From a virus: DNA of 24,596 nucleotides. Location: positions 1 through 24,596 of the IMG/VR virus record IMGVR_UViG_3300035670_001193. The stretch is one strand, 5' to 3'. Made by a program: the position numbers and the translations under genes. This document shows, one piece after another, positions 4,863 through 24,017 of the stretch. Below the pieces are notes generated by a model that worked only from the letters and a program-made list of their open reading frames with translations, was not told the DNA's origin and did no database searches. Within the stretch, counting starts at the first letter, position 1. Each line of letters opens with the position of its first letter.

Positions 4863-4871
4863 GAGGACACC

Positions 4872-5147: not shown

Positions 5148-6700
5148 TGGAAATTATCAAAGACAAGGTGTTGTTGGTGAGAACCAAGACACCGGAGAGA
5201 ATAACCGAGACGATTGAGGGTAGTAAGGCGCTGACAGAAAATGACGGTATCCATATGGTTGCCGTCAACTGGAACTTAAATGCAGCACAGTTGCTGAAGC
5301 GACTAAAGTTTAAGTCCGTGCCGTCGCCAATTAATCGAGACTACAACTGGCCGGGGGTATACCCCCCTATGCAGCACCAACGAGAAACTGCTGCGTTCTT
5401 AACTCTTCACCCCCGCTCCTTCTGTTTCAACGAACAAGGTACGGGTAAGACTGCGGCGGCTATCTGGGCATCTGACTACTTACTGACACAAGGTGCAGTT
5501 AACCGAGTCTTGATTGTATGCCCGCTGTCCATCATGCAGTCCGCATGGCAGGCAGACCTGTTTAAGTTTGCAATCCACCGAAAGGTAGGTGTTGCTCACG
5601 GGCCAAGAGAAAAACGGAAGGAAATTATTTCCGCGCCATACGAATACGTCATCATCAATTATGACGGTGTAGAGATAGTCGCAAAAGAAATCGAGAAGGG
5701 TGGCTTCGACCTTATTATCATAGACGAGGCAAACGCCTATAAAAATCCCGGCACTAAGCGATGGAAGATTATGCGGAACTTAGTGAAGCCGGAAACTTAT
5801 CTTTGGATGATGACTGGCACCCCTGCAGCCCAATCACCCGTTGACGCATACGGTCTAGCAAAGCTGTGTGTACCGGACAACGTACCCAAAGTATTCGGTG
5901 CTTTCCGTGACCGAGTCATGGAGCAAATCAATAAGTTTAAGTGGATTCCCAAGCATAACGCTAGTGAGACAGTACACGCTACTTTGCAACCGGCTATCCG
6001 GTATACGAAGGAAGAATGTCTAGACCTACCTGACATCGTGTACGTCGAACGTGAAGCTCCACTCACTCCGCAACAGAATAAATACTACAAAGAAATCAAG
6101 AACAAACTAGCAGCAGAAGCGGTTGGTGAAGAAATCAGCGCTGTTAACGCAGCAGCTAAACTGACCAAACTTCTACAAATCTCTGGTGGTGCGGTATACG
6201 CTGACTCGGGTACGGTCATTGAGTTTGACGTTTCAAACCGACTACAGGTGGTCAAAGAAGTAATCGAAGAGGCATCCCACAAGGTTCTTGTCTTTGTGCC
6301 TTTCCGCCATACCATTGATTTACTCGATGAGTATTTAACGCAGAACGGGATTCGAACCGAGATTATATGTGGTGACGTATCTGTAAGTAAGCGTACAGAC
6401 ATTTTCAATAGGTTCCAGACCCAAGATAACCCGCAGGTTCTGATAGTCCAACCACAGTCAGCAGCCCACGGCGTCACCCTCACCGCTGCAAATGTAATTA
6501 TCTGGTACTCGCCTGTAACTTCTATCGAGACGTATCTGCAAGCCAACGCCCGTATCAATCGCAAGGGGCAAAAGAACTCCATGACGGTCGTCCACATACA
6601 AGGCAGTGCTGTCGAGCGCGACCTGTACAAGATGCTCAGCAAGAAACTTGATACTCATCAAAGCCTTGTTGACCTGTACAAAAATGCGGTCAGTACTTGA
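5147..6700 (+). CDS. SNF2-type DNA helicase/translocase (SF2), 517 aa
   Basis: This is an ATP-driven double-strand DNA translocase by family. Motif I is NEQGTGKTAAA with K101, motif Ia region VLIVCPLSIMQSAW, motif II D193-E194-A195-N196 (IIIDEANAYKN), motif III MMTGTPAAQ, motif IV region KVLVFVPFRHT, motif V around VIIWYSP, and motif VI QANARINRKGQ with two arginines. Motif II is usually DEAH or DEAQ, so DEAN is a small departure. Length matches short phage SNF2 proteins without extra domains. Phages often place such enzymes with Cas4-like nucleases, and here the two are separated only by a small HNH gene. Likely roles are fork or branch remodelling and recombination. The gene's stop codon lies within the promoter that follows. 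Confidence 0.93.
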   Translation: MEIIKDKVLLVRTKTPERITETIEGSKALTENDGIHMVAVNWNLNAAQLLKRLKFKSVPSPINRDYNWPGVYPPMQHQRETAAFLTLHPRSFCFNEQGTGKTAAAIWASDYLLTQGAVNRVLIVCPLSIMQSAWQADLFKFAIHRKVGVAHGPREKRKEIISAPYEYVIINYDGVEIVAKEIEKGGFDLIIIDEANAYKNPGTKRWKIMRNLVKPETYLWMMTGTPAAQSPVDAYGLAKLCVPDNVPKVFGAFRDRVMEQINKFKWIPKHNASETVHATLQPAIRYTKEECLDLPDIVYVEREAPLTPQQNKYYKEIKNKLAAEAVGEEISAVNAAAKLTKLLQISGGAVYADSGTVIEFDVSNRLQVVKEVIEEASHKVLVFVPFRHTIDLLDEYLTQNGIRTEIICGDVSVSKRTDIFNRFQTQDNPQVLIVQPQSAAHGVTLTAANVIIWYSPVTSIETYLQANARINRKGQKNSMTVVHIQGSAVERDLYKMLSKKLDTHQSLVDLYKNAVST

Positions 6701-6725
6701 CACAGTAAAATAACTAGACTAGCAT
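6697..6725 (+). promoter_or_regulatory. sigma70-like promoter
   Basis: A perfect -35 box TTGACA (6697-6702) is followed, after exactly 17 bases, by TAGCAT (6720-6725), a four-of-six match to TATAAT. It lies in one of only two real gaps in the left arm and ahead of four genes read the same way. The -35 box overlaps the helicase stop codon. It would start transcription near 6732, giving a leader of about 37 bases. This is a sequence match only. Confidence 0.6.
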
Positions 6726-6732
6726 TCACACA

Positions 6733-6748
6733 TCGGGCATAGACCCGA
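6733..6748 (+). other. small leader hairpin TCGGG/CCCGA
   Basis: A five-base-pair stem (TCGGG, six-base loop, CCCGA) lies between the putative promoter and the ribosome site of the next gene. It has no T-run, so it is not a terminator. It could protect the mRNA 5' end or be chance. Confidence 0.3.
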
Positions 6749-6768
6749 GATACTTAGAGAGGTAATCC

Positions 6769-7179
6769 ATGACTGACGAAACAGCAGTAGACACTGACGT
6801 TCTTGTCTCGGCCTACGTGGCTATCCGAGATGAGAAGCATGAAATCAAGCGAGACATGGAAGAGAAACTCAAGGCACTCGACGTGCAACTTGAGGAAATC
6901 TCCCGTGCACTTCTGGAAATCTGCGAAACCAACAAAGCCGAAAGCATCCGCACCGCACATGGGACGGTTAGTCGTACTGTAAAGACCGACTACTGGACCA
7001 GTGATTGGGAGTCGATGTACAACTTCATCAAGGAGCACGATGCGTTCAACTTGTTGCATAAGCGCATCAATCAGACTTCTATGAAGCAGTTTCTGGAAGA
7101 GAACCCCGATATCCATCCAGAAGGCTTAAATGTCAATCGGGAATACGAAATCCGCGTCACTCGTTCGCGCAACTCTTAA
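6769..7179 (+). CDS. coiled-coil phage protein, 136 aa (Gp157/Gam-like layout, unproven)
   Basis: It starts at ATG 6769 behind AGAGAGGTAATCC. Residues 15-58 are a long charged amphipathic helix (IKRDMEEKLKALDVQLEEIS). A compact C-terminal part follows, with beta-like AESIRTAHGTVSRTVKTDYW and a helical KQFLEENPDIHPEG segment, then a basic strand (NREYEIRVTRSR). A coiled coil followed by a small beta domain is also the layout of phage Gp157 and Mu Gam-type proteins, which interact with DNA ends or host nucleases. I cannot show homology, so this is only a resemblance. It is the first gene after the promoter and sits just before the ssDNA-binding candidate. Confidence 0.65.
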   Translation: MTDETAVDTDVLVSAYVAIRDEKHEIKRDMEEKLKALDVQLEEISRALLEICETNKAESIRTAHGTVSRTVKTDYWTSDWESMYNFIKEHDAFNLLHKRINQTSMKQFLEENPDIHPEGLNVNREYEIRVTRSRNS

Positions 7180-7190
7180 GAGGTAATCAA

Positions 7191-8105
7191 ATGTCTAACG
7201 TCACCCTTTTCAAGAAGTCGGGTATCCCTGAGCACCTTCGCAACATCGGGGTCAACGACCTTACTAAAGCCCTTGCTCCGGGCGTCAACAACAGCCCGCT
7301 AAAGCGTATCTCCATCCGTGGTCGTGTCTTCCGCCTTGTTGTCAACGGTGAGGAAATGACCAAGAATGAGAGCAACAGCATGGAAGTGGTTATCGTCAAC
7401 GCTTCCAAGGACATCTCGCGTAGTTTCTATGCTGGTGCCTACGACCCGAAGGCCGAAGTTACTTCGCCGGATTGCTGGTCTCCTGATGGAGTGAAGCCTG
7501 ATGCCAGTGTCGAGAACCCGCAGCACCACAACTGCAAAGACTGCCCGAAGAACATCAAGGGTTCTGGAACTGGTGGCTCTCGCGCTTGCCGCTTCTCTCG
7601 CCGTCTTGCTCTGGCACTTCCTAATGATTTGGGAAGCGTCTACCAACTCGTCTTGTCTGCTACCTCCATCTTCGGGACCGGCGACCAAGAGCACATGCCA
7701 TTTAATCAGTACCTGACATACGTTGTCTCGCAGGGGTTCAGCATTAACGCCCTCGTTACCGAGATGAAGTTTGATAGCAACAGCGACACCCCGAAGCTTG
7801 TGTTTAGCCCTGTCCGCTTCTTGGACGAAGAAGAATACGAGCAAGCTGTACGCCTTGGTGATACACAAGAAACCAAGATGGCTATCTCGGCACCGAAGAT
7901 TCAAGCCAAGGCCCCTGCCGCCCCTGCCCTTGCCGCACCGGTCAAGGAACCCGCTGTTCACGAAGAGGAAGATGAGGAAGATATCCCTCCCCCGAAGGCC
8001 AAGAAGGCTGCACCTGCTGCAGCGGTGCCTAACATCAAGCCGGAACTGCAGGACATCCTTAGCAAGTTTGCCGCCAGTAAGTCGAAGGCCGTAGACGATG
8101 AGTGA
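7191..8105 (+). CDS. candidate ssDNA-binding protein with zinc site and acidic tail, 304 aa
   Basis: The N-terminal 200 residues look like an OB-type beta domain (RISIRGRVFRLVVNG, SMEVVIVNA). It is interrupted by a four-cysteine cluster C95, C115, C118, C133 (DCW, then HHNCKDCPKN and RACRF) that should hold zinc. A low-complexity Ala/Pro/Lys and Glu/Asp linker follows (residues 236-275), then a final helix and an acidic end (VDDE). Zinc in the core recalls T4 gp32, and the flexible linker with acidic tip recalls SSBs in general. Its place between replication genes fits a strand-protecting role. This rests on architecture, not on a recognised family signature. A recombination mediator is the main alternative. 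The leader shares GAGGTAATC with the gene before it. Confidence 0.6.
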   Translation: MSNVTLFKKSGIPEHLRNIGVNDLTKALAPGVNNSPLKRISIRGRVFRLVVNGEEMTKNESNSMEVVIVNASKDISRSFYAGAYDPKAEVTSPDCWSPDGVKPDASVENPQHHNCKDCPKNIKGSGTGGSRACRFSRRLALALPNDLGSVYQLVLSATSIFGTGDQEHMPFNQYLTYVVSQGFSINALVTEMKFDSNSDTPKLVFSPVRFLDEEEYEQAVRLGDTQETKMAISAPKIQAKAPAAPALAAPVKEPAVHEEEDEEDIPPPKAKKAAPAAAVPNIKPELQDILSKFAASKSKAVDDE

Positions 8106-11274: not shown

Positions 11275-11302
11275 GGCCCCGCCCCGTGCGGGGCAATTTT
11301 TT
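11275..11302 (+). terminator. intrinsic terminator of the left arm
   Basis: A GC-rich hairpin (GCCCC, loop GTGC, GGGGC at 11281-11294, or an alternative longer-loop pairing of 11276-11281 with 11289-11294) is followed by AA and six Ts (11297-11302). It lies 80 bases after the primase-helicase stop. The T-run overlaps the stop codon of the convergent 2115-residue gene. The reverse strand has no matching T-run, so it should act on left-arm transcripts only. Confidence 0.8.
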
Positions 11303-14300
11303 AGTCTTCGTCTTCTGCGTACTCGGTCATTTCTGCAGCGCGACCAAGGAAGGCTTTATTAACTCGTAAGCCACCAGCGCCTTCGGCCATCGCACGGACC
11401 TTAGCTCGCTTCTTCAAAGAATTTATAATTGTAGAGGGCTTGATGACTTTCTCAGGATTTGCCATGTTGAAGTCACCAATTTTTTCGAGCACTTCTGCTA
11501 CGGCATCCCCATCCCCTGCTTCATAAGCCATAGCCAAGAAGTTCAACAAATCTTGCCTGCGGTTGTCGATTGACACTTCCATAGCCTTGGCTTCGATGTT
11601 GGCTGCTTGTCGTTGGGCCAAACGTTCCGGAGTAAAGCCAAGCATTTGGATGAAGGCTTCCTTACCTGATATGTCATCCAACAAAGTATCGCCCTTCATG
11701 GTCAGCGCACCCTCGGACGCAATACGCGAACCGGCAAGCAAATTCTTAAGAACCGCTGGGGAGACTGCTTCGAAGGCGCGGTAAGTATTACCGTCGTTAT
11801 ATCTCTTGACCGCCTCGGCAGCATTGATACCCATGCCCGCAACCGGACCTAGCAGGTTAATCATCACATTCTGCACATAGGACACTTCGTCTTGGTTACG
11901 CTTGATATCGCGGAACCACATGTCGGTTAGGTTAGTGCTCATGCGGTCAGACAGGGAAGCGCCGGTAAGTTGCGGCACAACGCCACGAGCAATCGAATCA
12001 CCCACCACCCCGCCGAATACGGAGTGCAGCCAATTCTTGTACCAGTTTTCAACGTCGTACTCTTCTTCATCATCACCAAATACAGCAGCGAAAGCGTTTG
12101 CAATACCGCTGAAGATGAACCACACCGGCATACCCATCGTGCCAGCGAACAAGAACGACATACCCATCATGCCAGTAAATGCACGGCGGGCGTCTTGACG
12201 CATACGGATGGACTCTTCCATTAACTGTTGTGCTTCTTCAGTCTTACCAGCCGCCATCAGCGCTTTGTATTCTTCTTGACCAATCAGGCTAGTAGATTCA
12301 TACGCAGTGCGAAACAGCAGGTAAGTCATGTGCTGTGCATATTGCTTGAACTGCAACAGAATCTTTGGCAGGTCGCCTTGGAAATAGCGCGGCTTGTTGA
12401 CCGTCGAGTAGTCGAACATCGACTTGTAGGTCAGTTTCTTTGCCTGTTCAACAGCGTCCTTAAAGTTACCGCCGTTCTTCTTGTACGCTAAATCAAAAGC
12501 AGCCATGACCGTAACTTCGCGGTTGAAGCGCTCCGCCTTGTGGAAGGGGAACGAAGCGAAGGTCATAATCTTGTGCCAGCGTCCGGTGTAGTCGTTACTG
12601 GGTTGCTCTGCCAGACCCGCGATGTCGTGAGTCATGGAGATGTCGATAACACCAGCGTCCACGAATGCTTGATACGCCTTCTTCTCTACTTCGCTGAGAG
12701 CGGGACTTCTACCTACTGACGGGGTGTCAAACTTACCTGCCTCGTCCTTCCAGCCAGCACCGCTAAGCGCCTTCATATATTTGGTAAGCGACTGACGTGC
12801 AGGACCCCAACCATAAGGACCGGCAAGTACCGGGTACCCAATCGTAGGTACCGCCAGCATGTTGACAATGGCAGATGCAGGGGCCGTAAGATAAGTCAGG
12901 AAGCTTAGATTAGAGAGTAGAGTCGTAATCCAGCTTTGTTCGGCTGGGCTTAGTGCTGTCTCAACACGCTTACGAATCTCATTAAGATAGTCGTTCAGAA
13001 CACGGTTTTGTACATCTTGCTGTTCTGAAATAACTTCACCCGGCGCAGGCTTCAAATAACTTTCGGCTGCACTGAGGTTGTCCAGAATCTTTGGCGAGTA
13101 CTCGTACCGTGCTTGTTGATATGCCATATGGAACATCGAGTGCGCGAAACTACGTACCATATCTGCACTGGCACCCGGCACATTCTTACGATGCAAGAAC
13201 ATATTGCGGATACTCTGGGACGGCAGGGTGGTGATAAACAACTCACCAAGCTCATCAAGAATACGCTCACGTAACTGTTCAGCAGACTCACCCGGAGTTG
13301 TACCAATCTTACTCTTGAGTTCTTCAAACAACCGTGCATTCTGCAAAGCCGTTGCAGTCATCGACCTGACATCGTTACCAGATGCAAACGCCTCTGAAGG
13401 ATTCTTTTTTCTAGCGTCGGCCAACGCCTTATCTCTAGCAAAAGCACTCTCGAACATATAGAACTTCATGTTCACGCCGCTGCCTTCTTTGTACCAAAAA
13501 TTCCCAAAGCGCTTCAGCGGGAAGTATGGGTCAATCGTATCTTTGAATTGGTCTTCAATCTTGGCATCAGCAAGAACTTTAGCCAGCGCGGTGTCTGCCG
13601 TTTCCTTACCAGAAGCAATTAGCTTCTGAGCTTGTTGAGCAACTTCATCTTCAAGCATCTGACGGATTTCTTCTTCCGTCTTTGTGGCGTAGGTCTTTTT
13701 GTAAACGGGCAGATTGCGTTGGATATATTCTTGAGCAGCACGCTCAGCGGCTTCTTTGGAGCCGAGGATACGACGAAACTCTCGTTCAATAGAGATTCGC
13801 TTGTAGTTATTTAGCGTGTCCTTGTAGAACTGCCGCATCTCGCCATACAGTTCTTGGGCTATCGCACCGTCCTTCATCTTGCCAAGACGTTCCCAATCTG
13901 CACGGAGTAGGGTATATAACTTCTTCTTGGTCTTATCTGAAGGTTCGTTAGGACTAGACGGGTCTACTTGATTTGACGTAGCCGTTTGAATAATCGTAGT
14001 AAGAAGTTGAGATGTAGCTTCGTTAGAGCTGTAGAGTTTCATCAACTTATCAAGGATAGGCTTGCCCTTTTGGATAGTCTTGTTGCGGCTATCCTGCATG
14101 CCTTCGATACTGCGAATAAGCTGAGACACTTGAGGAATCTTGGCCTCAAACCCAGCCTTACCAAACTCCACACCCATCATTTCTTCAATCTGACGCAGGG
14201 TGAATGCACCGAGCCAGTACTTGCGAGTCTGGTCCTTCATGGTCGCCCATGAGTTAGACAGAACGAACTTGATGTCGTCGAATGACTTAGAGTTTCTAAT

Positions 14301-17300
14301 CTGGTCGCCGATGAACCTGATTGCACTAGGTTCTTCGTTGGAGTTGTTCTCATAGTACCCGCGCTTGGCTGCTCGGGGCGTGATGGTGCTGAAGGTATTG
14401 GGGCGCTTCGGAGCATCAAACAGCATTTCTACGTTACGCATAGTTTGGGACAGAACATTCTCCATACCAAACAGACGCATGACGTACTGCATGAACTTGC
14501 TCCACAAGTCTTTAGAAGTGTTCTTGTAGGGTATGCTTTGCAGTAACTTTTGGAACTCGTGGTTGGTAAAGGCTTCAGCTACAAACTCGTCTAAGTTAAC
14601 AAACCCATACTTCTTCACACCAGAAGTGGTCTTGGCGTACTCGTAAAGCTTCTTCAGTTCTTTTACTGCACGGACCTGCTTATCCCCAAATGCTTCTGGG
14701 TTTTCGATGATTCTAGTTGTTGCCGCATGCATGACTTCGTGTAAGAACACGTAGTTCGTCTCTGCCATGCTGTCGTTTTCAGGGAGGAGGGAGATAGAAT
14801 CTGTATCAGGGAAGTAAAGCCCTGCCCCCTTAGTAGTATCTGAGTACATCCCAGCTACATATTTTTGTAGTTCTTGAATAACTTCGTATAAATTTTCTGA
14901 GCCTTCTTTACCTTTAACTAAATCCAAAGCCATAGTTAAAGTGTCGTTCATCACATACAACCGCTCACGGTTGTTAATATTGGGGCTAGTAATATCTTCC
15001 ATATTCTTGGCGGCTTCTTTGTACCCAAGAATATCTAAGCTTCTGCGGATGTAATCAAAATCCCTTACCATCCTAGAGTCCGGAGTAAAGTAGGATGCGA
15101 GGTTTTGCTCTAGATTGTCAAACCCAACCGAGGATTTAAGTTTGAGAGAAAGAAGTCTGGTAACAAGCTGTCTTTGGTAAGGGGTTAGATTCCCAACAGC
15201 CATCATCGCACGCAACGCACCATTGAGGTCGTTGTTTTTGATAGCCGACTGAACAGCCGGGTGCATAGTTCTGTTGAGAGGCCCAGTTACCTTTTCGGAT
15301 GTGGGGAAAAACTCACGACGAGTTTCTCTTTCGGCTTCTTCGTATTCGCGTACGGTTGCGGCCTCTTCTTCCAGATACTCGCTGCGCTCTGCACGTTGAC
15401 GGTCAATCTCTGCATCACGACGAGCGCGATTCTCATATGCCTTGCGGTAATTCTCAAACTTGCGGTTTACTTCCGGGGTGGAGTTAAGCAGCAGCCACTC
15501 TTGGAAGAACGGGGCCGTAGTTGCCCCCTGCCCGCTAAACAACTCATTACGAGGTGTGCCATATGCCATATCGAAGGCAGCGGCACGGAGTGCGGTATCA
15601 AAGTCGAACCGGCGGAAATAGTCGTGCGCAGCACGTTCAGCCTTATCTAACTTAGATGGGTCTTGGGCCTTTTGGCGTAAGCGAGCAAGGCTTTGCTTAG
15701 CCTGTGCGTAAGCATTAGTACCCGGAGTAACACCGAAGCCCTTAAGCTGCTGTTCTGATACGAAGTCGTTGAACGCCGTGCGTAGTTTATTTACGCCGTC
15801 GTAAGTGGTGAGGTCGGGAAGCTTGGTGTGACGCTGCAGAAAATCTTTCTGCTGTTCCGGTGACATAGCACCGATATTCTCAAACTCACGTGCAACTTCA
15901 GGACTTACTGGCTTGAAGTACTTACCAAAGAATTCTTTAACCAGTCCGGTGTAGTACGGCAACTCTTTGTCGTCAACACCAAGGTCTTCGTACATATCAC
16001 GAATATCCCGGATAAGGCCCTTGTCTTCCGAGATGGCGCTGCGTTGCTTGTTCCCTTCAATTTCAGAAGGCGAGCTGGGTTGGATAGATGCAATGAACCG
16101 TTCTAAAGGAGCGGCACTAACATCAGTAACAAGGGCGTCGGATGGCGTGACAGTTTCAATCTTGGGGGCACCACGCTCTTCTTGCTCAACAGGCGCACCG
16201 AGGTCCAGCCCTTGCTGGGGAGTGGGGGCAGTGGTAGTTACCGGCGCAGTTCTTTGTTCCTGAGAAACTGGCTCACCTAAATCAAACCCTTGTTGTTCCC
16301 CCATAGCGGCACGGGGGGTAGATGGAAAGGCATCCGCAGGCATCTGGTCAATCTGTTCTGCCAAGTCCATCTGCGCCGTGTCAATTTCTTGTAGGCGGCT
16401 TTGAGTCTCAGGGGTTTGTTCTGCCTCCAACAAAGACCGACGTTCGGTTTCTAGCTGGTCGTATTGTTGCTGTAGAGTCTGAGCAGAGGGGAACGCAGCT
16501 TCGGCAGCAGCATCAATCGCGGCTTGTTCTTCTGCGGAAACGGACGGTGTAGTGGGCGTTGTAGCACCAGCAGCCTCGGCTTGGATAGCTGCGCGTTCGT
16601 CCTCATCCAACTCATCAAAAGCGTTCTTACCGGCGGGCACACCTTCACGAGCTTTCTTTTCTTCTCGGAACGCCGCCTTCTCTCGTGCGCCTTGAGCAGC
16701 GCCAGCAACACCACCGAAGAGCACCGAACCAGCGGCACCTGCGATACCTGCATCAACTACACGTTGAAATTCTTTGCTACCCCAGACATCAGAGTTCTCT
16801 GCAACAAACCTCTCTGCCGCAATACTAATTGCTTCTTGTGCGCCTTCGGTTAGACCTTCTGTAGCAACACCAATACCGATGTTACGCAGGGCGGACTTGA
16901 TGATGCTGGGTTCTGCTCCCGATTTCTCCAGCACTTTCTCAACTACTTTCTGCTTGACTGGGCCAGTCAGCTTATTCAACACATACGCAGGGAATGCGGA
17001 ATCAAGCGCAGCGGACACCGAGCCATAGAGCATGGCTACTCCCGGCTCCATCTGACCAGTTTCTTGGAATACGTTTTGAAAGATTTCGGGGGAGTTAAGT
17101 GCGTACGAGCCTAAATAAACACCAGCCGCTTGCCCTGCTTTTTGCCCAAGCGCTTGTTTGGCAAGTACTTCAGCGCCTTTCTCCGCAGCCATGCGACCAG
17201 CAACTGCGCGGCCAGCCATACCAGCGGCACCGCCCGGAATAAGTACAGTAGCAACGTTAGGGATTTGCTCAACACCGGCTTCAAGCAGATATGGCAGAAC

Positions 17301-17648
17301 ATCACCAAGCCCTTGCACATTACGATAGCTTTCGTATCGCGGGGCATACTTCTCTTGAATTTCTTTCTGGCTAGCGGCAGCTTCTTCCATCTGCCGTTGT
17401 GCATACTCATCCGCACCAACAGCCTTTGCTGCCATAGCGGGAATAATATCGCCGAAGGTAACACCCAATTGCTTGGTGCCCCGAGCAAGGGCACGACCTG
17501 TCATATCTAACAGGCCCATTTCTTCGGGTGGTTGTTGCTGAGCGTATTGGGGTAGTATCTTGTTTTTAATCGCATCCTCTATGTCCGCAGTTGACATAGT
17601 GTCTGGAAACCTAACGTCTCCAACATTAGGAATGCGAATGACAGGCAT
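11301..17648 (-). CDS. giant polyvalent virion protein with HExxH metallopeptidase motif and PLxRFG domain, 2115 aa
   Basis: This chain takes up a quarter of the window. It starts at ATG 17648 behind AAGGGG. Residues 1-30 are a small motif seen at the front of phage ejection-type proteins (IPNVGDVRFPDTMSTADIED). An Ala/Gly-rich region follows (to about 330), then a Glu/Gln/Pro-rich linker with an internal repeat. A zincin-like motif H970-E-V-M-H974 is followed by DEFVAEAF (E1021, E1025), which could supply the third ligand. PLKRFG at 1377-1382 matches the PLxRFG domain of polyvalent proteins. Hydrophobic segments lie near 1583-1612 and 1820-1855. By family such proteins are packaged and delivered with the DNA. 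The membrane segments and last-in-operon place fit a T7 gp16-like ejection role, but that is inference. Confidence 0.85.
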   Translation of the reverse strand: MPVIRIPNVGDVRFPDTMSTADIEDAIKNKILPQYAQQQPPEEMGLLDMTGRALARGTKQLGVTFGDIIPAMAAKAVGADEYAQRQMEEAAASQKEIQEKYAPRYESYRNVQGLGDVLPYLLEAGVEQIPNVATVLIPGGAAGMAGRAVAGRMAAEKGAEVLAKQALGQKAGQAAGVYLGSYALNSPEIFQNVFQETGQMEPGVAMLYGSVSAALDSAFPAYVLNKLTGPVKQKVVEKVLEKSGAEPSIIKSALRNIGIGVATEGLTEGAQEAISIAAERFVAENSDVWGSKEFQRVVDAGIAGAAGSVLFGGVAGAAQGAREKAAFREEKKAREGVPAGKNAFDELDEDERAAIQAEAAGATTPTTPSVSAEEQAAIDAAAEAAFPSAQTLQQQYDQLETERRSLLEAEQTPETQSRLQEIDTAQMDLAEQIDQMPADAFPSTPRAAMGEQQGFDLGEPVSQEQRTAPVTTTAPTPQQGLDLGAPVEQEERGAPKIETVTPSDALVTDVSAAPLERFIASIQPSSPSEIEGNKQRSAISEDKGLIRDIRDMYEDLGVDDKELPYYTGLVKEFFGKYFKPVSPEVAREFENIGAMSPEQQKDFLQRHTKLPDLTTYDGVNKLRTAFNDFVSEQQLKGFGVTPGTNAYAQAKQSLARLRQKAQDPSKLDKAERAAHDYFRRFDFDTALRAAAFDMAYGTPRNELFSGQGATTAPFFQEWLLLNSTPEVNRKFENYRKAYENRARRDAEIDRQRAERSEYLEEEAATVREYEEAERETRREFFPTSEKVTGPLNRTMHPAVQSAIKNNDLNGALRAMMAVGNLTPYQRQLVTRLLSLKLKSSVGFDNLEQNLASYFTPDSRMVRDFDYIRRSLDILGYKEAAKNMEDITSPNINNRERLYVMNDTLTMALDLVKGKEGSENLYEVIQELQKYVAGMYSDTTKGAGLYFPDTDSISLLPENDSMAETNYVFLHEVMHAATTRIIENPEAFGDKQVRAVKELKKLYEYAKTTSGVKKYGFVNLDEFVAEAFTNHEFQKLLQSIPYKNTSKDLWSKFMQYVMRLFGMENVLSQTMRNVEMLFDAPKRPNTFSTITPRAAKRGYYENNSNEEPSAIRFIGDQIRNSKSFDDIKFVLSNSWATMKDQTRKYWLGAFTLRQIEEMMGVEFGKAGFEAKIPQVSQLIRSIEGMQDSRNKTIQKGKPILDKLMKLYSSNEATSQLLTTIIQTATSNQVDPSSPNEPSDKTKKKLYTLLRADWERLGKMKDGAIAQELYGEMRQFYKDTLNNYKRISIEREFRRILGSKEAAERAAQEYIQRNLPVYKKTYATKTEEEIRQMLEDEVAQQAQKLIASGKETADTALAKVLADAKIEDQFKDTIDPYFPLKRFGNFWYKEGSGVNMKFYMFESAFARDKALADARKKNPSEAFASGNDVRSMTATALQNARLFEELKSKIGTTPGESAEQLRERILDELGELFITTLPSQSIRNMFLHRKNVPGASADMVRSFAHSMFHMAYQQARYEYSPKILDNLSAAESYLKPAPGEVISEQQDVQNRVLNDYLNEIRKRVETALSPAEQSWITTLLSNLSFLTYLTAPASAIVNMLAVPTIGYPVLAGPYGWGPARQSLTKYMKALSGAGWKDEAGKFDTPSVGRSPALSEVEKKAYQAFVDAGVIDISMTHDIAGLAEQPSNDYTGRWHKIMTFASFPFHKAERFNREVTVMAAFDLAYKKNGGNFKDAVEQAKKLTYKSMFDYSTVNKPRYFQGDLPKILLQFKQYAQHMTYLLFRTAYESTSLIGQEEYKALMAAGKTEEAQQLMEESIRMRQDARRAFTGMMGMSFLFAGTMGMPVWFIFSGIANAFAAVFGDDEEEYDVENWYKNWLHSVFGGVVGDSIARGVVPQLTGASLSDRMSTNLTDMWFRDIKRNQDEVSYVQNVMINLLGPVAGMGINAAEAVKRYNDGNTYRAFEAVSPAVLKNLLAGSRIASEGALTMKGDTLLDDISGKEAFIQMLGFTPERLAQRQAANIEAKAMEVSIDNRRQDLLNFLAMAYEAGDGDAVAEVLEKIGDFNMANPEKVIKPSTIINSLKKRAKVRAMAEGAGGLRVNKAFLGRAAEMTEYAEDED
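16168..16296 (-). repeat. two-copy protein repeat in the linker of the giant protein
   Basis: Two 18-residue copies, QQGFDLGEPVSQEQRTAP and QQGLDLGAPVEQEERGAP, lie about 8 residues apart in the low-complexity linker between the Ala/Gly-rich region and the peptidase region. The DNA of the copies has diverged (TTTGATTTA against the other copy's codons), so the duplication is not recent or the protein sequence is under selection. Confidence 0.75.
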
Positions 17649-17657
17649 GACTACCCC

Positions 17658-19442
17658 TTACTCTATTTTGCCGGTCTTGGGATTATACGTGCCAGCAATT
17701 CCGCTTGTACCCAACGCGCTTTCCGTTGACAAGACCCTGTTAATTTCTTCATTCAGGATATTGTTTTGTGCGTCCTTATCACCAGCCTTGACCGCTTTGA
17801 TATAGTCCGGACGCAGGGACGCACGTTCAATGGCCTTATCTCTAGCACGAAGTTTAGCTGCTTCTAGAGTAGATGTGCCACCCATCAGAGCAAACTGTCT
17901 AGCGGCGTATTCGGTTTGCTTTTCAATATCGTTCGGGAATAGCCTCTTGGCGTTATCAATAACGAACGACGCTTGCGTCGGACGCGCCGCCGCTGCGGCC
18001 TGTGCTTCGGCACTGAGCTTACTGATATCAAGCTGACGCAACTTGATTGCGAGGTCCCGTTCCGCTGCTTCTTGAGACAGATTAGTCGTTTGAATTCGAC
18101 CTGCCTCTGCGAGCTGGGCCTGAACATCACTACGTTCAAATACTTGCGACTGTCTCTGTGCAGCGACCCTATCCTTTGCAACTTCTCGCTTGGCTTGAGC
18201 TACATCACGGCGGTTTTCTCTAAGGTCAGCAGCGGCTTCCTTACTACCTTCCTGACGGAAGCGATTTTGAGCATCGGCAAGTGCGAACTGAGCAGCATCA
18301 AGTTTTTCTTGCGAAGCATCCAGTTTTTCACGGGCGTCTGTGTAAGCTTGTAGGCCCTTCATAGCACCCTGACCAATATTAGTGAGTGCAAACGGAGAGG
18401 TGCCAGCAGCGGTAGCAAAGCCAGCTTGCATAACTGCTTCCCAAATACCTTGGGCGCGACGCTTCTCAATATCACCTTCCCGTTTCTTTAGGCGTTCCGC
18501 TTGTTCAGTATATGGCGCTTCACTAACCCCAAACGCTGCTTGCACATCCTTAACCCGTTGTGCGGCTTCCTCCGTCTTCAACTCAGGCGGAACATAGGTC
18601 TTTTCATCAAGATAAATCGGCTTGCTAAGGTCTTTTAGTTGCTGCATAACTTCTGGGGTATACACAGAAGTAGCCCGGCCAAGCTCAGTAGAAATACCAC
18701 CAGAACCCGGAAGACTTGGGGTAGGAGGGGGTGGGGGGACTAAATCACGAATGCCACCTTCGGGAGAAGGCGGTCCGGGGGGCGGCGGAGGAGGCGGCGA
18801 GACAGCGGCAGGAGCGGGAACAGGTGGCTTAGATTCTCCAAAAATAGCACGACCTAACGGACTCGAAGTTTCTTCTGGTTTAGCCGACCGCATAACTTCA
18901 GCGCGTTGTGTTTTTAAAGCGTCTAATTGTTTATTAAGGGCGTCATAAGCAGCTCGTTGTTCTGGATTTTGCTGGGATAACCCAAAAAACCCACCAAGTT
19001 GCCTGAGCTTGGCTGTAATAGCAGCCATTTGAGCGTCGATTTCTCTAAGAGCTTCATTACGCGCTGTTACCAAATTACCAGTTTGGAACCGCTGAACTTC
19101 CCCACCATCTTCAAACGCAACGATGCCGCCGCCTGCCATGCTTTGTTCTTGGAACATGGTATCTGGTACGGGGAGAGCAGCAACACCCGGTTGCATTTGG
19201 GGTTGCATTTGGGGCTGAGGCTGTAACTGTGCGATGCCTTGTTGGGTAAGGTCCTCTGCTACGGTCTTTTGTGGAGCCTGCGCTTGAGATTGTTGGAACT
19301 CCTGCCGCATATTCTGACGACGCTGCAACTCGCCCAAAACAAGGTACTGCGGAACCTCGCCACTGGGGTTCTGTGCATATTGGACAAGCGCCTTGTCAGG
19401 CAAGCCTTTAAGCTGGTCTTGAAGTTTAAGGATGTTTGCCAT
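17658..19442 (-). CDS. virion-associated coiled-coil protein, 594 aa
   Basis: It starts at ATG 19442 behind AAGGA. Residues 1-50 hold a motif common in this kind of phage protein (LKGLPDKALVQYAQNPSGEV, then PQYLVLGELQRRQNMRQEF). Next are a Gln/Pro repeat (QPQMQPQMQP), a glycine module (AGGGIVAFEDGGEVQRFQTG, residues 103-122), a long polyproline stretch (PPPPPPPGPPSPEGG) and a long Ala/Glu/Arg-rich helical region (about 260-520) that should form coiled coils. No enzyme motif is visible. Together with its two upstream neighbours and the 2115-residue gene it forms a block resembling internal or ejection proteins. This is inferred from position and composition. The 2115-residue gene starts nine bases after its stop. 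Confidence 0.65.
   Translation of the reverse strand: MANILKLQDQLKGLPDKALVQYAQNPSGEVPQYLVLGELQRRQNMRQEFQQSQAQAPQKTVAEDLTQQGIAQLQPQPQMQPQMQPGVAALPVPDTMFQEQSMAGGGIVAFEDGGEVQRFQTGNLVTARNEALREIDAQMAAITAKLRQLGGFFGLSQQNPEQRAAYDALNKQLDALKTQRAEVMRSAKPEETSSPLGRAIFGESKPPVPAPAAVSPPPPPPPGPPSPEGGIRDLVPPPPPTPSLPGSGGISTELGRATSVYTPEVMQQLKDLSKPIYLDEKTYVPPELKTEEAAQRVKDVQAAFGVSEAPYTEQAERLKKREGDIEKRRAQGIWEAVMQAGFATAAGTSPFALTNIGQGAMKGLQAYTDAREKLDASQEKLDAAQFALADAQNRFRQEGSKEAAADLRENRRDVAQAKREVAKDRVAAQRQSQVFERSDVQAQLAEAGRIQTTNLSQEAAERDLAIKLRQLDISKLSAEAQAAAAARPTQASFVIDNAKRLFPNDIEKQTEYAARQFALMGGTSTLEAAKLRARDKAIERASLRPDYIKAVKAGDKDAQNNILNEEINRVLSTESALGTSGIAGTYNPKTGKIE
19189..19212. repeat. perfect tandem 12-bp repeat
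   Basis: GGTTGCATTTGG occurs twice in direct tandem (19189-19200 and 19201-19212). In the gene on the minus strand it encodes the repeated Gln-Pro-Gln-Met. Copy number could change by slippage without breaking the frame. Confidence 0.85.
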
Positions 19443-19451
19443 ATTCGTTCC

Positions 19452-20567
19452 TTACCTCATAACCTTGTCTAACATAAGCTTAGCTAGCCCGGTGTTGTAA
19501 TTGCGCTTTACTTGGCCGCCCTTGGCAAAACCTGCGGCACGACTCAAACCGTACGCACCCGCCCCAAGACCCGCTATTTGAGAAACAATATTAGGGCCGG
19601 GTTGCGTAGTCTGTTGAACAGTGCCAAACAACGGGGCATTACCACGAACGATATCTGAATAAAATGCAATCTGTTCACGCGGGTAGCCGCGCTGTGCGAG
19701 GAAGTCTTGATACCGTTGGTCAAGAATGCGTTGCTCACGGGCCTGAATCTCGCTAGCAATCTGACGTTGTGCTTCAAGACGAGCGAGGTCTGCACGCTGA
19801 CTAGCCCCAGCCAATTCACCTAAACCAAGAGCGGATTGCAGAGACGTACCTAAACCGGCTTGACCAACTTGTGCCCCCAAACCAGCAGCACCAGCAGCGG
19901 CTGCACGGTCACGTTCAAACTGTTCTTGGGCACGGAGGAAGGCGGCTTCGCTACCACGGGCTTGAATGTCCCCGCGTTGAGTCATTAAGTTACGTGCGAG
20001 TTCAGCGCGTTGAAGCGCTTCAGCAGAACCTCCGGCAACACCACGACCCGCTGCTTGCAGTCCAATATTCCTACGCTCAATATCAGCCGCACGTTGTGCT
20101 TCACGAAGGGCGATGTCGGTGACGTTTTGCTGGTACGGAGACATGTAATAGCCAGCTTCACGCTGACCAAACGTACCGGGGGTATAGGCTAAAGCACGAC
20201 CCAAACCTTGTTGTGCTGTACCAAAACCTAAAGCCCCCGTGCCTTGAGCGCCAGCCATAGCCGTTTGATACTGTTCGGGAGTGCGCAACCCCATGACTTC
20301 TGCTTGAACAGCTTGTTGCTCCGGTGCAAACTCAGCAATACGTTGGCCTTGATACGGTACATACGGGAGCGCCGCTACCTTTTGGCCTTCTTGAATTACT
20401 TCGCGTACATACGGCACGAGTTCCGGAGGAACAGACTGCTGAACAGTCGTAGTGCTAGACCCACCGCCCTTGCCACCGCCCCCTTCGGGCTTGATGCGCT
20501 TGTCACCAATGTGCTTGAAAGCCTCTGGCGGTAGGTCGGGAATATCTAGAAGAAGTCTGCGGTCCAT
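19452..20567 (-). CDS. virion-associated Ala/Gln-rich protein, 371 aa
   Basis: ATG 20567 follows a good AAGGAAAGC site. The front is glycine- and serine-rich (KPEGGGGKGGGSSTTTVQQS), then comes PPELVPYVREVIQEGQKVA and the block YYMSPYQQNVTDIALREAQ, which I associate with uncultured aquatic phage structural proteins. Residues 140-300 are Ala/Arg/Glu-rich and helical (ARGSEAAFLRAQEQFERD). The end has a small hydrophobic patch (IAGLGAGAYGLSRAAGF) and the motif FAKGGQVKRNYNTG at 347-360. Function is unproven. A T7 gp14-like ejection or internal virion protein is a reasonable guess from length, helicity and position. The gap to the next gene is nine bases. Confidence 0.6.
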   Translation of the reverse strand: MDRRLLLDIPDLPPEAFKHIGDKRIKPEGGGGKGGGSSTTTVQQSVPPELVPYVREVIQEGQKVAALPYVPYQGQRIAEFAPEQQAVQAEVMGLRTPEQYQTAMAGAQGTGALGFGTAQQGLGRALAYTPGTFGQREAGYYMSPYQQNVTDIALREAQRAADIERRNIGLQAAGRGVAGGSAEALQRAELARNLMTQRGDIQARGSEAAFLRAQEQFERDRAAAAGAAGLGAQVGQAGLGTSLQSALGLGELAGASQRADLARLEAQRQIASEIQAREQRILDQRYQDFLAQRGYPREQIAFYSDIVRGNAPLFGTVQQTTQPGPNIVSQIAGLGAGAYGLSRAAGFAKGGQVKRNYNTGLAKLMLDKVMR

Positions 20568-20576
20568 GTGCTTTCC

Positions 20577-21803
20577 TTAAGCTGGCATGTACTTTTCGGG
20601 CTTGATTTGCTTGCCCTGCTTGGTCGTACCAGTACGTGCCTTGCGAACTTTGTCCATCATACTGTAGAGGCGCTGCGCACCGGCCTTAGTAGAGCCATTA
20701 CCAAGGTGGGAAACGACATCGGCGGGTACAACAAACTCACCATCAGCGAGACGGGCGGGCTGCTTGCCTTCAATAGTAGCGGGAATATCATCGCTCATCC
20801 CATCACCCGGACCATCAAGGTAGCCGCCTTTCTTATACCCACCCATCGGCTCACCAAATTCGCGGTTGGCGTTGCGTGCATCAAATACACCCATCATCGG
20901 GTTCAAAGACGCAACACCCCCTTGGGCATAACCCATACGGTCAGCATATTGACGGCGGCGTTCAGACAGCGGAGTAAATTCACCAAAGCCAAATGACTGC
21001 TGCGGAGCGCCCATAGGTTCGGGAGTTAAAGCAGTTATTGCAGGAGCTAGAGCAGAACCTGTTTGAAAAAGAGCTTTTCCGGGGCCACCCGCAGCTTCAA
21101 CAAATCTATCTATACCGCCGGGGGAAACAAGCGACTTCAACCCACTACCAGCGGCGGAAAGATTTTGAGAGAAGGCGTCGGTCAGGCTGGGGGTTGTTGG
21201 TAAAGGAACATTAATCCCGGGTAGTGGTGCAGCACCGCCGGGGGTTCCGGGCAAAGCTTGGATACCTGTAGTGCCCGCAGTTAAATTAGGCTTTAACGAA
21301 AATGCTACGTCGTCAACAAGATTAGGAGCTAATCCACTTTGCGTGCCCATTGCTCCTGCAACACCAACAGCTTGCCCCCCACCAGTTGCTAGGCTTTTAC
21401 CTACTTCAATACCTTGCGTTAAAGGACTAGTGGTAGCGGGCGCTCCGGCTTTCATCAAAGAAGAACCAAATTGGTTAGCGCCGTACTGCATACCAGCAGA
21501 CATAAGAGCTTGTAGCGGGTCGCCGGTTTGAACTAGCGTCTTACCGCCAGAGTAGGCAACGGCTAGATGTGGATTGCCCGAAAGAGTTAATGCGGTGGGA
21601 ACAACGTAGTCTGCAATAAAATCCAGAAACCCTGCTTCCGGAAGGCCCGTATCGGGGTTTATAGTTAAACTACCACCAGCAGCCATAGCTAAATTTTGAA
21701 GCCCCGAAACTTCTCTAGGGGTAACGTGCATCAGCATAGTGTCCCTACCGCGACCTAAAGCGGCTAGACCTTGGGCTGCATCTTTCGGATTTAGTGTATT
21801 CAT
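20577..21803 (-). CDS. tail or internal virion protein with glycine module, 408 aa
   Basis: ATG 21803 (MNTLNPKDAAQGLAALGRGR) is preferred over a TTG at 21839 that would run into the neighbour. The ribosome site is weak. Residues 20-60 (LMHVTPREVSGLQNLAMAAG, then SLTINPDTGLPEAGFLDF) and a Gly/Ala/Pro-rich middle look like an extended structural protein. From residue 292 there are two glycine motifs (YAQGGVASL, YKKGGYLDG), then GDGMSDDIPATIEGKQPARL and DGEFVVPADVVSHLGNGS, a C-terminal module I recall from many phage virion proteins. The basic end (KARTGTTKQGKQIKPEK) may touch DNA. No enzyme motif was seen. The exact virion location is unknown. Confidence 0.6.
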   Translation of the reverse strand: MNTLNPKDAAQGLAALGRGRDTMLMHVTPREVSGLQNLAMAAGGSLTINPDTGLPEAGFLDFIADYVVPTALTLSGNPHLAVAYSGGKTLVQTGDPLQALMSAGMQYGANQFGSSLMKAGAPATTSPLTQGIEVGKSLATGGGQAVGVAGAMGTQSGLAPNLVDDVAFSLKPNLTAGTTGIQALPGTPGGAAPLPGINVPLPTTPSLTDAFSQNLSAAGSGLKSLVSPGGIDRFVEAAGGPGKALFQTGSALAPAITALTPEPMGAPQQSFGFGEFTPLSERRRQYADRMGYAQGGVASLNPMMGVFDARNANREFGEPMGGYKKGGYLDGPGDGMSDDIPATIEGKQPARLADGEFVVPADVVSHLGNGSTKAGAQRLYSMMDKVRKARTGTTKQGKQIKPEKYMPA

Positions 21804-21819
21804 GGTCTGATTATATGTG

Positions 21820-22449
21820 CTAAGCGATTGCCGACACAAGGTTAATTGTAAGAATCACGGACGGAATCTCGGGGCGAGTTGGACTAGTTCCGCCAGCGTA
21901 ATGTTCTAAAACCACGTCTGCACCGTCTGACCACCACGCAATCTCAAGATACTCTGTCAGAGGGTCGTTAACTGTGAAGATGCCGGACTTAACCGCAACC
22001 ACGTGGCTATACACAGAAACACTTTTACGGGCAGCTATATCAAACCGAGAACCACTAAGCGGGTAGTTAGTACCGGCATCCTTAGCCCACACTTCGATAA
22101 TCTGTGCGGCGTTACCCCGATTGGCAAACTGCAAAGACATTGTTACCAGATACTGTCCGGGGTAGTAAGGCTGGATGCGCGTGTCATTAGGGCCAGTGAC
22201 TGCAATGTTGTTGGTGAAGACCGGAGTATCAAACCTAATCAAATTCTCAGACGTAGTACCCGCGCTCAACTGGTCTTGGTTCGACATCAACATGGCATAC
22301 GGCGACACGTTCTTTGTGCCATCCCAATACGCCGAATCAAGCTGAGAAAAATAAAGTTTTAGCGCCCGTTGAAGCTGGTCCTGCTGGCCTTCGTTGTAGT
22401 CCTTTGTAGGCAGGGGTAGCGCAGGGGAGCGAAACTTTAACATCCCCAT
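21820..22449 (-). CDS. beta-sandwich (C1q/TNF-like) structural protein, 209 aa
   Basis: A strong GGAGGGG site lies eight bases before ATG 22449. The first 45 residues are helical (GQQDQLQRALKLYFSQLDSA). The rest is almost all beta: GQYLVTMSLQFANRGNAAQI, IEVWAKDAGTNYPLSGSRF, then SVYSHVVAVKSGIF, YLEIAWWSD, VVLEHYAGG and SVILTINLV. The order of strands, with a polar sugar-binding-type turn after the VW strand, recalls C1q/TNF-like jelly rolls in phage head-decoration or fibre tips. I infer this from the pattern. Its N-terminal helix may anchor it to the virion. It sits one base after the stop of the 521-residue gene. Confidence 0.6.
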   Translation of the reverse strand: MGMLKFRSPALPLPTKDYNEGQQDQLQRALKLYFSQLDSAYWDGTKNVSPYAMLMSNQDQLSAGTTSENLIRFDTPVFTNNIAVTGPNDTRIQPYYPGQYLVTMSLQFANRGNAAQIIEVWAKDAGTNYPLSGSRFDIAARKSVSVYSHVVAVKSGIFTVNDPLTEYLEIAWWSDGADVVLEHYAGGTSPTRPEIPSVILTINLVSAIA

Positions 22450-22451
22450 AC

Positions 22452-24017
22452 TTAACCCCTCCGACCATCGGGACGAGCATCAATACGCGGCATGCCCATC
22501 TGCCACTGCACACCCAGACCATCCGAAGCAATCTTGTACTTCATCTGACGACCACGGGCACGCAGGAAAACTTGATTGGTGTACTGGTCGATGATAGCGG
22601 TGGCTTGGTTGCGGCTGGCAGTTACGGTTCTGGTAAGACCGGTGCCTTCAAGATTATCGGTGGCGTAAAGCTGACCGGGGAAGTTGTGCGGTTGAATGGT
22701 CAGCTTAACTTCTGGACTATTTGATGTCGAACCCACAAAGTTAATGTCGGGAATAATCCGGCGGATAAGCATGAACTGCTCACCGTCCTCAATATCAATG
22801 TCACCCGAAGAGATGTAGGCTTCAAGCGGCAGGCCATCTGCATCAACCCCGCGCTCTTGGTCAAACAACCACCCACTAGTAGAAGCACCTTGGGGGTAAG
22901 TACGCAGGGGTGAATCAAGCCAAGCAGTGCGCTCAAGCTGGCCGTAGTACCAGATTTGTTCTTGGTAGTTGTAGATTACGTAGCGGTCAACTTCGGTAGA
23001 ATTTTGGCTCGGATAGAACCATACAATCTCGTTGAACTGCTCGTTAGTACCGCAGATAGTTTGAATCTGGGTTTGGCGGTTGATGTCTTGGAAGATGTAT
23101 TGGCGCAGGGTGCACGGCAGCGTATCGACGCGGCCATTGTAGATATAGAACTTATCCCAGCCCATCCAGTATGTAACGTTGTTTACCGTGGTCAGGGCAG
23201 CGGGGGAAATGATAGAGATGTTGTCTGCCAGTTCATACAGACCAAATACTTCAGATGTACCCAAGAAGCGCAACGAGTACAAAGTAGAGTCTGTAAATAC
23301 AAGAATTTCTTCCCGCGTGCGGGTGGCCCGTACAATCTCAGAGCCGTTAGTTACCCGTAAGAAACCAGCGCTGTTGGTGGTAGAAGGCGTGAAGTTCCAA
23401 GGTTCGTCTTGGTTAGCCCATCGAATACCCAGCGGGTCGTAGACAGCCGTACCATATGCGGTACCACCGAAAGCCAGCAGGTGTCGGTCCTGCTGCGAGA
23501 AAAGAATACTACCTACGATTTGCGGAACGTCGGAAGCATTAGGTACGGAGGACAGAAGAACGGCGCGGGTATCAAAGGTGTTGACGTAATCCCAGTAGTA
23601 AATGTCACCGTTGCGGATACAGAAAAGAAGGTCGTTGTTGAACCGGTCTTGTGTATACAGACGAGGGGGAATAATCACAGGTACGTTAGTACCAGAACCC
23701 CAAGCACCCCGAGACCATGTGCCTGCACCCCAGCCGTAACCACCAGCACCAGTAGCCGCGCCTGCATGGATATCAAAAACAAACGATATGGGGGCGGTGT
23801 ACGAAGCAGCGGAAGAAGCGGCTGTGGTTGTAGTGACAGTAAAGGTGTTTACCGTTACGTTTGAGATTATGTGGTTGGTGTTGATTTCAGACGCAGGGAT
23901 TCCACCAACGGCAGTGTTTACGTTTTCAATAAGTACATAGTCCCCGTTCAACGCACCGTGGCTGTTCAGGGTAACAGTGATTTGGTTAGACCCGGCGGCA
24001 GTGTTTAATACGCTCAT
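22452..24017 (-). CDS. stabilization/tail nozzle-like structural protein, main part, 521 aa
   Basis: The chain is almost all beta. It has the block GGYGWGAGTWSRGAWGSGTN near residue 95, then RFNNDLLFCIRNGDIYYWDY, HLLAFGGTAYG, EILVFTDSTLYSLRF, VTYWMGWDKFYIYNGRV and EIVWFYPSQN. Repeated WxYYxG-type strands suggest a beta-propeller, as in P22 gp10 or T7 gp12-like proteins that close the portal or build the tail tube. I assign it to this class by style, not by search. The start ATG 24017 overlaps the stop of the 138-residue gene (ATGA) with GGTGG upstream. In related proteins I recall the two parts as one chain, so this looks like a split gene. Confidence 0.7.
   Translation of the reverse strand: MSVLNTAAGSNQITVTLNSHGALNGDYVLIENVNTAVGGIPASEINTNHIISNVTVNTFTVTTTTAASSAASYTAPISFVFDIHAGAATGAGGYGWGAGTWSRGAWGSGTNVPVIIPPRLYTQDRFNNDLLFCIRNGDIYYWDYVNTFDTRAVLLSSVPNASDVPQIVGSILFSQQDRHLLAFGGTAYGTAVYDPLGIRWANQDEPWNFTPSTTNSAGFLRVTNGSEIVRATRTREEILVFTDSTLYSLRFLGTSEVFGLYELADNISIISPAALTTVNNVTYWMGWDKFYIYNGRVDTLPCTLRQYIFQDINRQTQIQTICGTNEQFNEIVWFYPSQNSTEVDRYVIYNYQEQIWYYGQLERTAWLDSPLRTYPQGASTSGWLFDQERGVDADGLPLEAYISSGDIDIEDGEQFMLIRRIIPDINFVGSTSNSPEVKLTIQPHNFPGQLYATDNLEGTGLTRTVTASRNQATAIIDQYTNQVFLRARGRQMKYKIASDGLGVQWQMGMPRIDARPDGRRG

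What the first reader, a model, noticed from the sequence alone, without database searches (positions are those of the whole stretch)
11301..17648. 2115-residue virion protein combines an HExxH peptidase motif, PLxRFG and membrane segments
Seen: HEVMH at residues 970-974, DEFVAEAF about 45 residues later, PLKRFG at 1377-1382, and hydrophobic segments near 1600 and 1840. Known: PLxRFG and zincin domains belong to polyvalent proteins, thought to be delivered with phage or plasmid DNA and to act on the host at once. Inference: the virion injects a protease together with a membrane-spanning ejection module. A protease that cuts host defence proteins, or the phage's own ejection proteins, would be new biology. 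The roughly 390 residues between the two motifs, and much of the C-terminal third, have no assignment I can make.
Basis: partly seen in the sequence, partly recalled or inferred. Interest (0 to 1): 0.62.

Follow-up and report, generated by a model that had tools for sequence, protein, structure and literature searches.

The report
Phage ejection protein with built-in metalloprotease
This giant gene encodes the largest of three proteins that a short-tailed phage probably shoots into its host ahead of its DNA; it carries a conserved zinc-protease domain of a kind already described in phage polyvalent proteins, and the same domain is found, labelled 'endolysin', in well-studied laboratory phages.

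Summary
The motifs are real, on the minus strand (the finding gave no strand). HEVMH (970-974) lies in a zincin-like domain (about 797-1072). A 28-sequence model is confident there (mean pLDDT 84) and resembles the ejection protein of phage PhiM1, anthrax lethal factor and PPEP peptidases. H970, E971 and E1021 are invariant in 28 relatives, H974 in 27; E1025 is not. Relatives fetched with the N-terminal module alone all keep HExxH or HExxxH where that region is present.
The 'unassigned' parts are known domains: LPD39 (1138-1308) and NCBIfam tail-700 (1374-2089), which begins with PLxRFG. Membrane-spanning segments near 1600 and 1840 are not demonstrated.
Best reading: the largest protein of a three-gene podophage ejection operon, in the position of T7 gp16, phiKMV gp37 and N4 gp50. 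All three window proteins lack cysteine (0 in 3,080 residues), as do nearly all ejection proteins checked in nine podophages.
Zincins in polyvalent proteins, with self-processing and host targets as possible roles, were described in 2017, so the kind is known. Apparently unreported in the papers I could search: the 'endolysin' domain of PhiM1 gp48 and phiKMV gp37 is this zincin, and ejection proteins exclude cysteine. Activity, substrate and virion presence are untested.

The parts
11301..17648 (-). 2115-aa ejection protein (position of T7 gp16, phiKMV gp37, N4 gp50), no cysteine
16689..17516 (-). conserved N-terminal module, residues 45-320, Ala/Gly-rich, borderline hydrophobic stretches; marks the family
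   Evidence: best segments 33-57% identical in all but one of the loci found; no match in the annotated phage collection
15261..16658 (-). variable slot, residues 331-796; no detectable similarity except in the closest relatives; other relatives carry a polyvalent ART or a GHKL-type ATPase in the stretch before the zincin
14397..15260 (-). zincin-like metallopeptidase domain, residues 797-1084 (confident model to about 1072)
14727..14741 (-). HEVMH, residues 970-974 (two zinc ligands and catalytic Glu)
14586..14588 (-). E1021, invariant third-ligand candidate
13725..14237 (-). LPD39 (PF18858), residues 1138-1308; below the gathering cut-off here (23.7 of 27 bits), above it in relative L002 (37.9)
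11382..13529 (-). tail-700 domain (NF032893), residues 1374-2089, mostly helical; begins with PLKRFG
   Evidence: (E 4.8e-148)
13503..13520 (-). PLKRFG, residues 1377-1382
17658..19442 (-). 594-aa second protein of the operon, no cysteine, no family match; the gene in this position carries an SLT transglycosylase domain in relatives L014 and L016
19452..20567 (-). 371-aa first protein of the operon: DNA ejection protein (phrog_4287), no cysteine
   Evidence: (E 8e-14)

Best explanation
The gene encodes the largest ejection protein of a short-tailed phage. It is stored in the capsid, goes through the tail unfolded with its two smaller partners (371 and 594 aa), and refolds in the envelope as part of the channel through which the DNA enters. 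The N-terminal module is the best candidate for membrane association, residues 331-796 are a slot where relatives can carry extra activities, and LPD39 plus tail-700 form the helical scaffold. The zincin-like domain is an intact metallopeptidase that most likely works after ejection, locally, on an envelope protein of the host or on the ejection channel itself. Shown by computation: zincin motif, fold resemblance and ligand conservation, domain make-up, gene order, homology of the zincin to solved ejection proteins, absence of cysteine. Inferred: packaging, ejection, membrane contact, proteolysis, its timing and substrate. My odds: ejection protein about 0.9; competent zinc site about 0.8; acts as a protease after ejection about 0.5.
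For: Zincin: model mean pLDDT 84, HEVMH on a helix, E1021 on a following helix, short strands before them; VIA-align matches PhiM1 ejection protein Z 10.3, anthrax lethal factor Z 8.0, PPEP-3 Z 6.6, PPEP-1 Z 6.0; profile matches to solved phage proteins 9sfn_G (4.6e-22), 8vb2_A (1.8e-14), 23sg_S (2.4e-9); hhalign to phiKMV-group ejection proteins 99.3%, E 1.8e-20, to N4 vRNAP C1 95.6%, E 1.1e-8. Retention: all relatives found with the N-module alone and reaching this region keep HExxH or HExxxH, against about 1% per shuffled sequence. Ejection: upstream DNA-ejection protein, same three-gene arrangement in phiKMV, PhiM1, N4, PEp14, phi14:2 zincin protein annotated from virion MS/MS. Cysteine: 0 of 3,080 in the window trio, 6 of 66,550 in the family, 15.2 per 1000 in long minus-strand ORFs of the same loci; 0 in trios of N4, LIT1, EE36phi1, phiKMV, PhiM1, PEp14, Skulduggery and P22, 1 in T7, 9 of 2,255 in P1 DarB. 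Timing: N4 gp50 is packaged unprocessed and recombinant gp50 shows no degradation; PhiM1 gp48 is modelled in the virion over 1,103 of 1,263 residues.
Against: No zinc, activity or substrate is shown for any of these ejection proteins in the papers read. Foldseek alone gave no match below E 0.001; Z of 6 to 10 is middling by the tool's own note. T7 gp16 does not have a recognisable copy of this domain, so it is not essential to ejection in general. Neither neighbour matches a solved ejection protein, and the 594-aa one matches nothing.
Confidence: 0.7

Rival explanations
1. Self-processing polyprotein: the zincin cuts its own chain, before packaging or after injection, to release the N-module, the slot domain and the C-terminal scaffold as separate proteins.
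For: Proposed by Iyer et al. 2017; phage P1 DdrB is proteolytically processed before packaging. The zincin sits between a variable slot and a C-terminal module, and some relatives carry enzymes in the slot.
Against: N4 gp50 is packaged unprocessed and recombinant protein shows no degradation. PhiM1 gp48 is largely intact in the virion. The compact proteins of phiKMV and PhiM1 (1,337 and 1,263 aa) keep the zincin although much shorter. The stretch before the zincin is not conserved across the family, so no common cut site is evident there.
Confidence: 0.2
2. Injected anti-host effector: the zincin enters the cytoplasm and cuts host defence or regulatory proteins.
For: Offered as a possibility by Iyer et al. 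2017. Relatives carry other effector-like domains, such as a polyvalent ART.
Against: The zincin core is retained across phages of Pseudomonas, Pectobacterium, Klebsiella, Xanthomonas, Proteus, Providencia and Cellulophaga, unlike the slot, which turns over; that favours a general infection step over a host-specific target. No substrate known.
Confidence: 0.15
3. Structural or inactive zincin: the fold and perhaps the zinc are kept for assembly of the ejection protein, without proteolysis.
For: The MPTase region of N4 vRNAP is required for encapsidation. One relative has HExxxH (L002).
Against: The catalytic Glu (E971) is invariant with the ligands in all 28 aligned sequences although mean column identity is 26%, which a purely structural zinc site would not demand. 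HExxxH is a described polyvalent variant.
Confidence: 0.15
4. Peptidoglycan hydrolase, as the labels 'endolysin' and 'exotransglycosylase' on related proteins suggest.
For: PhiM1's authors assign residues 268-528 of gp48 as endolysin/exotransglycosidase-like; many records carry such labels.
Against: That stretch contains HEAAH at 385 and matches our zincin profile. A muralytic domain lies in the partner protein in phiKMV and PhiM1 and in relatives L014 and L016. No glycosidase family matched here.
Confidence: 0.07

Closest known systems
PhiM1 gp48 / phiKMV gp37 (largest ejection protein of these Autographiviridae; PhiM1 structure 8vb2)
   Same: Largest of three ejection genes, homologous zincin with HExxH and downstream Glu, no cysteine
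   Different: 1,263-1,337 aa; not the N-module of this family; the C-terminal half only weakly similar to tail-700 (hhalign probability 43%); annotated as endolysin domain
N4 virion RNA polymerase gp50 (Schitoviridae)
   Same: Giant, cysteine-free, third ejection protein; homologous zincin C1 followed by about 1,100 helical residues; N-terminal part incorporated into membrane nanodiscs
   Different: RNA polymerase occupies the middle; the C2 domain shows no detectable similarity to tail-700
DarB-like giant proteins of PEp14, Lastavirus and Skulduggery type phages (phrog_10089, NF032893 tail-700)
   Same: Same C-terminal 700-900 residues, PLxRFG, an HExxH 450-520 residues upstream, same operon order, no cysteine
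   Different: 3,700-4,900 aa, different N-terminal two thirds; the PEp14 gene is annotated as putative DNA methylase
Polyvalent proteins with zincin-like MPTase domains (Iyer et al. 2017)
   Same: Large multidomain phage protein with zincin and LPD domains; HExxH and HExxxH variants both described
   Different: This domain set and its place in a podophage ejection operon are not singled out in the passages I read

Membership tests
Zincin-like metallopeptidase | HExxH on one helix, third acidic ligand on a following helix | tested here: met
   H970, E971, E1021 invariant in 28, H974 in 27 of 28; helices in the model
Zincin-like metallopeptidase | zincin fold | tested here: inconclusive
   Best structural match is the PhiM1 ejection protein, with zincin peptidases among the top rows, Z 10.3 to 6.0; Foldseek E above 0.001
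Zincin-like metallopeptidase | bound zinc and peptidase activity | not testable with these tools
   needs purified protein
Polyvalent protein (Iyer 2017) | several unrelated domains including LPD or MPTase in one large phage protein | tested here: met
   zincin, LPD39, tail-700; ART-PolyVal and LPD38 in relatives
Polyvalent protein (Iyer 2017) | delivered with the DNA | not testable with these tools
   inferred only
tail-700 / PLxRFG domain (NF032893) | score above the curated cut-off of 100 bits | tested here: met
   494.6 bits
LPD39 (PF18858) | score above the gathering cut-off of 27 bits | tested here: not met
   23.7 bits in the window, E 4e-5; 37.9 bits in relative L002
Podophage ejection protein, T7 gp16 position | third of three consecutive ejection genes in the late operon | tested here: met
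   371-aa phrog_4287 protein, 594-aa protein, then this one; same order in L001, L012, L015; that the 594-aa protein is an ejection protein is inferred from position and absence of cysteine
Podophage ejection protein, T7 gp16 position | sequence homology to a solved ejection protein | tested here: met
   zincin region only; the C-terminal module gives weak or no match
Podophage ejection protein, T7 gp16 position | presence in the virion | not testable with these tools
   no proteomics for this phage

The most novel reading that the evidence does not exclude
A metallopeptidase is a widespread, general working part of podophage ejection channels, mislabelled as endolysin in model phages. It acts on the envelope or the channel after ejection, and ejection proteins are under near-absolute selection against cysteine because they cross the oxidising periplasm unfolded.
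Probability: 0.35. Interest if true: 0.75.

Novelty: new member of a known kind. Interest (0 to 1): 0.45.

Why it matters
How podophage ejection proteins cross the envelope and what the largest one does at the inner membrane is an open question. If the zincin is active, cultivated phages such as phiKMV, LUZ19, PhiM1 and N4 carry an untested enzyme in that very protein, and a single catalytic-residue change would test its role. Absence of cysteine offers a simple sequence mark for ejected podophage proteins in uncultured genomes.

Tried and rejected
Membrane spans at 1600 and 1840: borderline hydrophobicity, mostly with Gly and Pro, model broken or of low confidence there; not established, not excluded. 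Homology of the C-terminal module with N4 C2: hhalign 0.1%; a motif that looked alike by eye was dropped. Homology with phiKMV gp37 C-terminus: collinear but 43%, left open. Fold of the C-terminal module: no strong match; T7 core protein 9jyy_I (Z 4.7, 184 residues) and cyanophage A4 9k3a_A (Z 4.2) are listed but weak. HERLH in T7 gp16 at 559 lacks the zincin surroundings, taken as chance. No solved relative of the N-module or the two smaller proteins. Terminase PF03237 search gave nothing above the cut-off; PHROGs found terminase, portal and head genes in the L001 genome instead. Zincin-profile scans with alignments A3 and A4 failed for lack of a conserved stretch. The collections of bacterial and metagenome contigs were not searched.
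Full report
Observation. The 2115-residue ORF lies on the minus strand of 11301-17648. HEVMH is at 970-974, PLKRFG at 1377-1382 and DEFVAEAF at 1020-1027. By composition the protein would be expected to hold 0.008 HExxH and 0.0012 PLxRFG. The record is a 24.6-kb IMG/VR virus fragment.

Domains. NCBIfam tail-700 (PLxRFG domain-containing protein) covers 1374-2089 with E 4.8e-148. Pfam LPD39 covers 1138-1308, below its cut-off here but above it in relative L002. PHROGs give the DarB-like and related giant proteins for the C-terminal part, and the N4 virion RNA polymerase for 859-1091. Residues 331-796 remain without assignment.

Family. The N-terminal module (45-320), which holds no zincin, was used alone to scan IMG/VR and gave 34 loci. 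Every one whose contig reaches the region encodes HExxH, or HExxxH in L002/L024. After removal of duplicates there are 31 sequences with the window; the chance of any HExxH in a shuffled sequence is about 1%. In 28 alignable zincins H970, E971 and E1021 are invariant and H974 is present in 27; in L038 and L041 the motif lies in a region I could not align with confidence. Most relatives have zincin plus tail-700, whereas L004, L005, L032, L034 and L035 have no detectable tail-700; LPD38 was found in the three of these that were scanned (L004, L005, L032). The stretch between N-module and zincin differs from phage to phage: a polyvalent ADP-ribosyltransferase in L011 and a GHKL-type ATPase in L019.

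Structure. AlphaFold2 with 28 sequences gives mean pLDDT 84 over 797-1113, low after about 1072. The second-look aligner puts the PhiM1 ejection protein first (Z 10.3), with zincin peptidases (lethal factor, PPEP-3, PPEP-1) at Z 8.0 to 6.0 among the top rows. Foldseek alone was not significant, so the fold rests mainly on profile matches and motif conservation. The profile finds three solved phage proteins: 9sfn_G 'internal virion protein' (4.6e-22), 8vb2_A PhiM1 gp48 (1.8e-14) and 23sg_S 'gp10' (2.4e-9). 9sfn_G has the length of phiKMV gp37 (1,337 aa), which carries HEAVH at 423.

Reach of the domain. The zincin region alone matches 257 annotated phage records, many named 'internal virion protein with endolysin domain', 'internal core protein' or 'peptidoglycan lytic exotransglycosylase'. 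Nine were read; all have HExxH with a downstream Glu. The PhiM1 paper assigns this stretch as endolysin/exotransglycosidase-like, and its main text nowhere mentions a protease or peptidase. In phiKMV and PhiM1 a lysozyme domain is in the partner protein, as is an SLT domain in relatives L014 and L016. So I read the 'endolysin' label on this domain as probably wrong.

Ejection. Directly upstream lie a 594-aa protein and a 371-aa DNA-ejection protein (phrog_4287). Three consecutive genes with the largest third is also the arrangement in phiKMV, PhiM1, N4 and PEp14. The genome of relative L001 has terminase, portal and head genes; tail type was not proven. The zincin protein of Cellulophaga phage phi14:2 is annotated as structural from MS/MS, and the giant DarB-like protein of phage JC1 was found in virions (PMC9144972); I did not test JC1 for tail-700.

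Cysteine. The three window proteins have none in 3,080 residues; the family has 6 in 66,550; long minus-strand ORFs of the same loci, mostly the convergent replication genes, have 15.2 per 1000. Trios of N4, LIT1, EE36phi1, phiKMV, PhiM1, PEp14 and Skulduggery have none; P22 none in 1,309 and T7 one in 2,261. Other virion proteins of N4, LIT1, EE36phi1, T7 and P22 have 2.5-7.2 per 1000. P1 DarB, from a phage with a contractile tail, has 9 in 2,255. The crAss-like zincin proteins have a few. The N4 and DEV papers do not mention it, and one literature search found nothing; that is not proof of novelty. Shared ancestry means these are not independent counts.

Mechanism. An ejection role is well supported. 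For the zincin, cleavage before packaging is disfavoured by N4 gp50 and PhiM1 gp48, which are found essentially intact. Retention of the catalytic Glu argues for chemistry. Retention across unrelated hosts and slot contents argues for a general step after ejection. The substrate is unknown, and a structural role remains possible.

Novelty. Zincins in polyvalent phage proteins, including HExxxH forms and both proposed functions, were published in 2017. This protein is a new member of that kind. What adds to it is the link to solved and cultivated ejection proteins and the cysteine pattern.

Noticed in passing
window 11301-20567 minus strand: No cysteine in any of the three ejection proteins; the same pattern, with one exception in T7 gp14, in ejection trios of nine reference podophages.
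   Followed up: partly
window 22452-24017 and 24014-24430 minus strand: Two ORFs overlapping by 4 bases match successive parts of one virion protein family (phrog_3287, 8-114 and 103-524): a split gene, a frameshift or a sequence error.
   Followed up: no
NC_041854 (L043) 3358-7149 and NC_005045 (L042) 3256-7269: PhiM1 gp48 and phiKMV gp37 are annotated with an endolysin domain, but the stretch matching our profile is zincin-like with HExxH.
   Followed up: partly
L019 5342-14152: Relative with about 850 extra residues between N-module and zincin, holding a GHKL-type ATPase match and a second HELAH.
   Followed up: partly
L038 8848-18783: Relative with LPD1 and Strawberry-notch/type III helicase domains in the same protein.
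   Followed up: no
window 20577-21839 minus strand: 420-aa protein with a weak match to a phage spike domain (PF18781, below cut-off).
   Followed up: no
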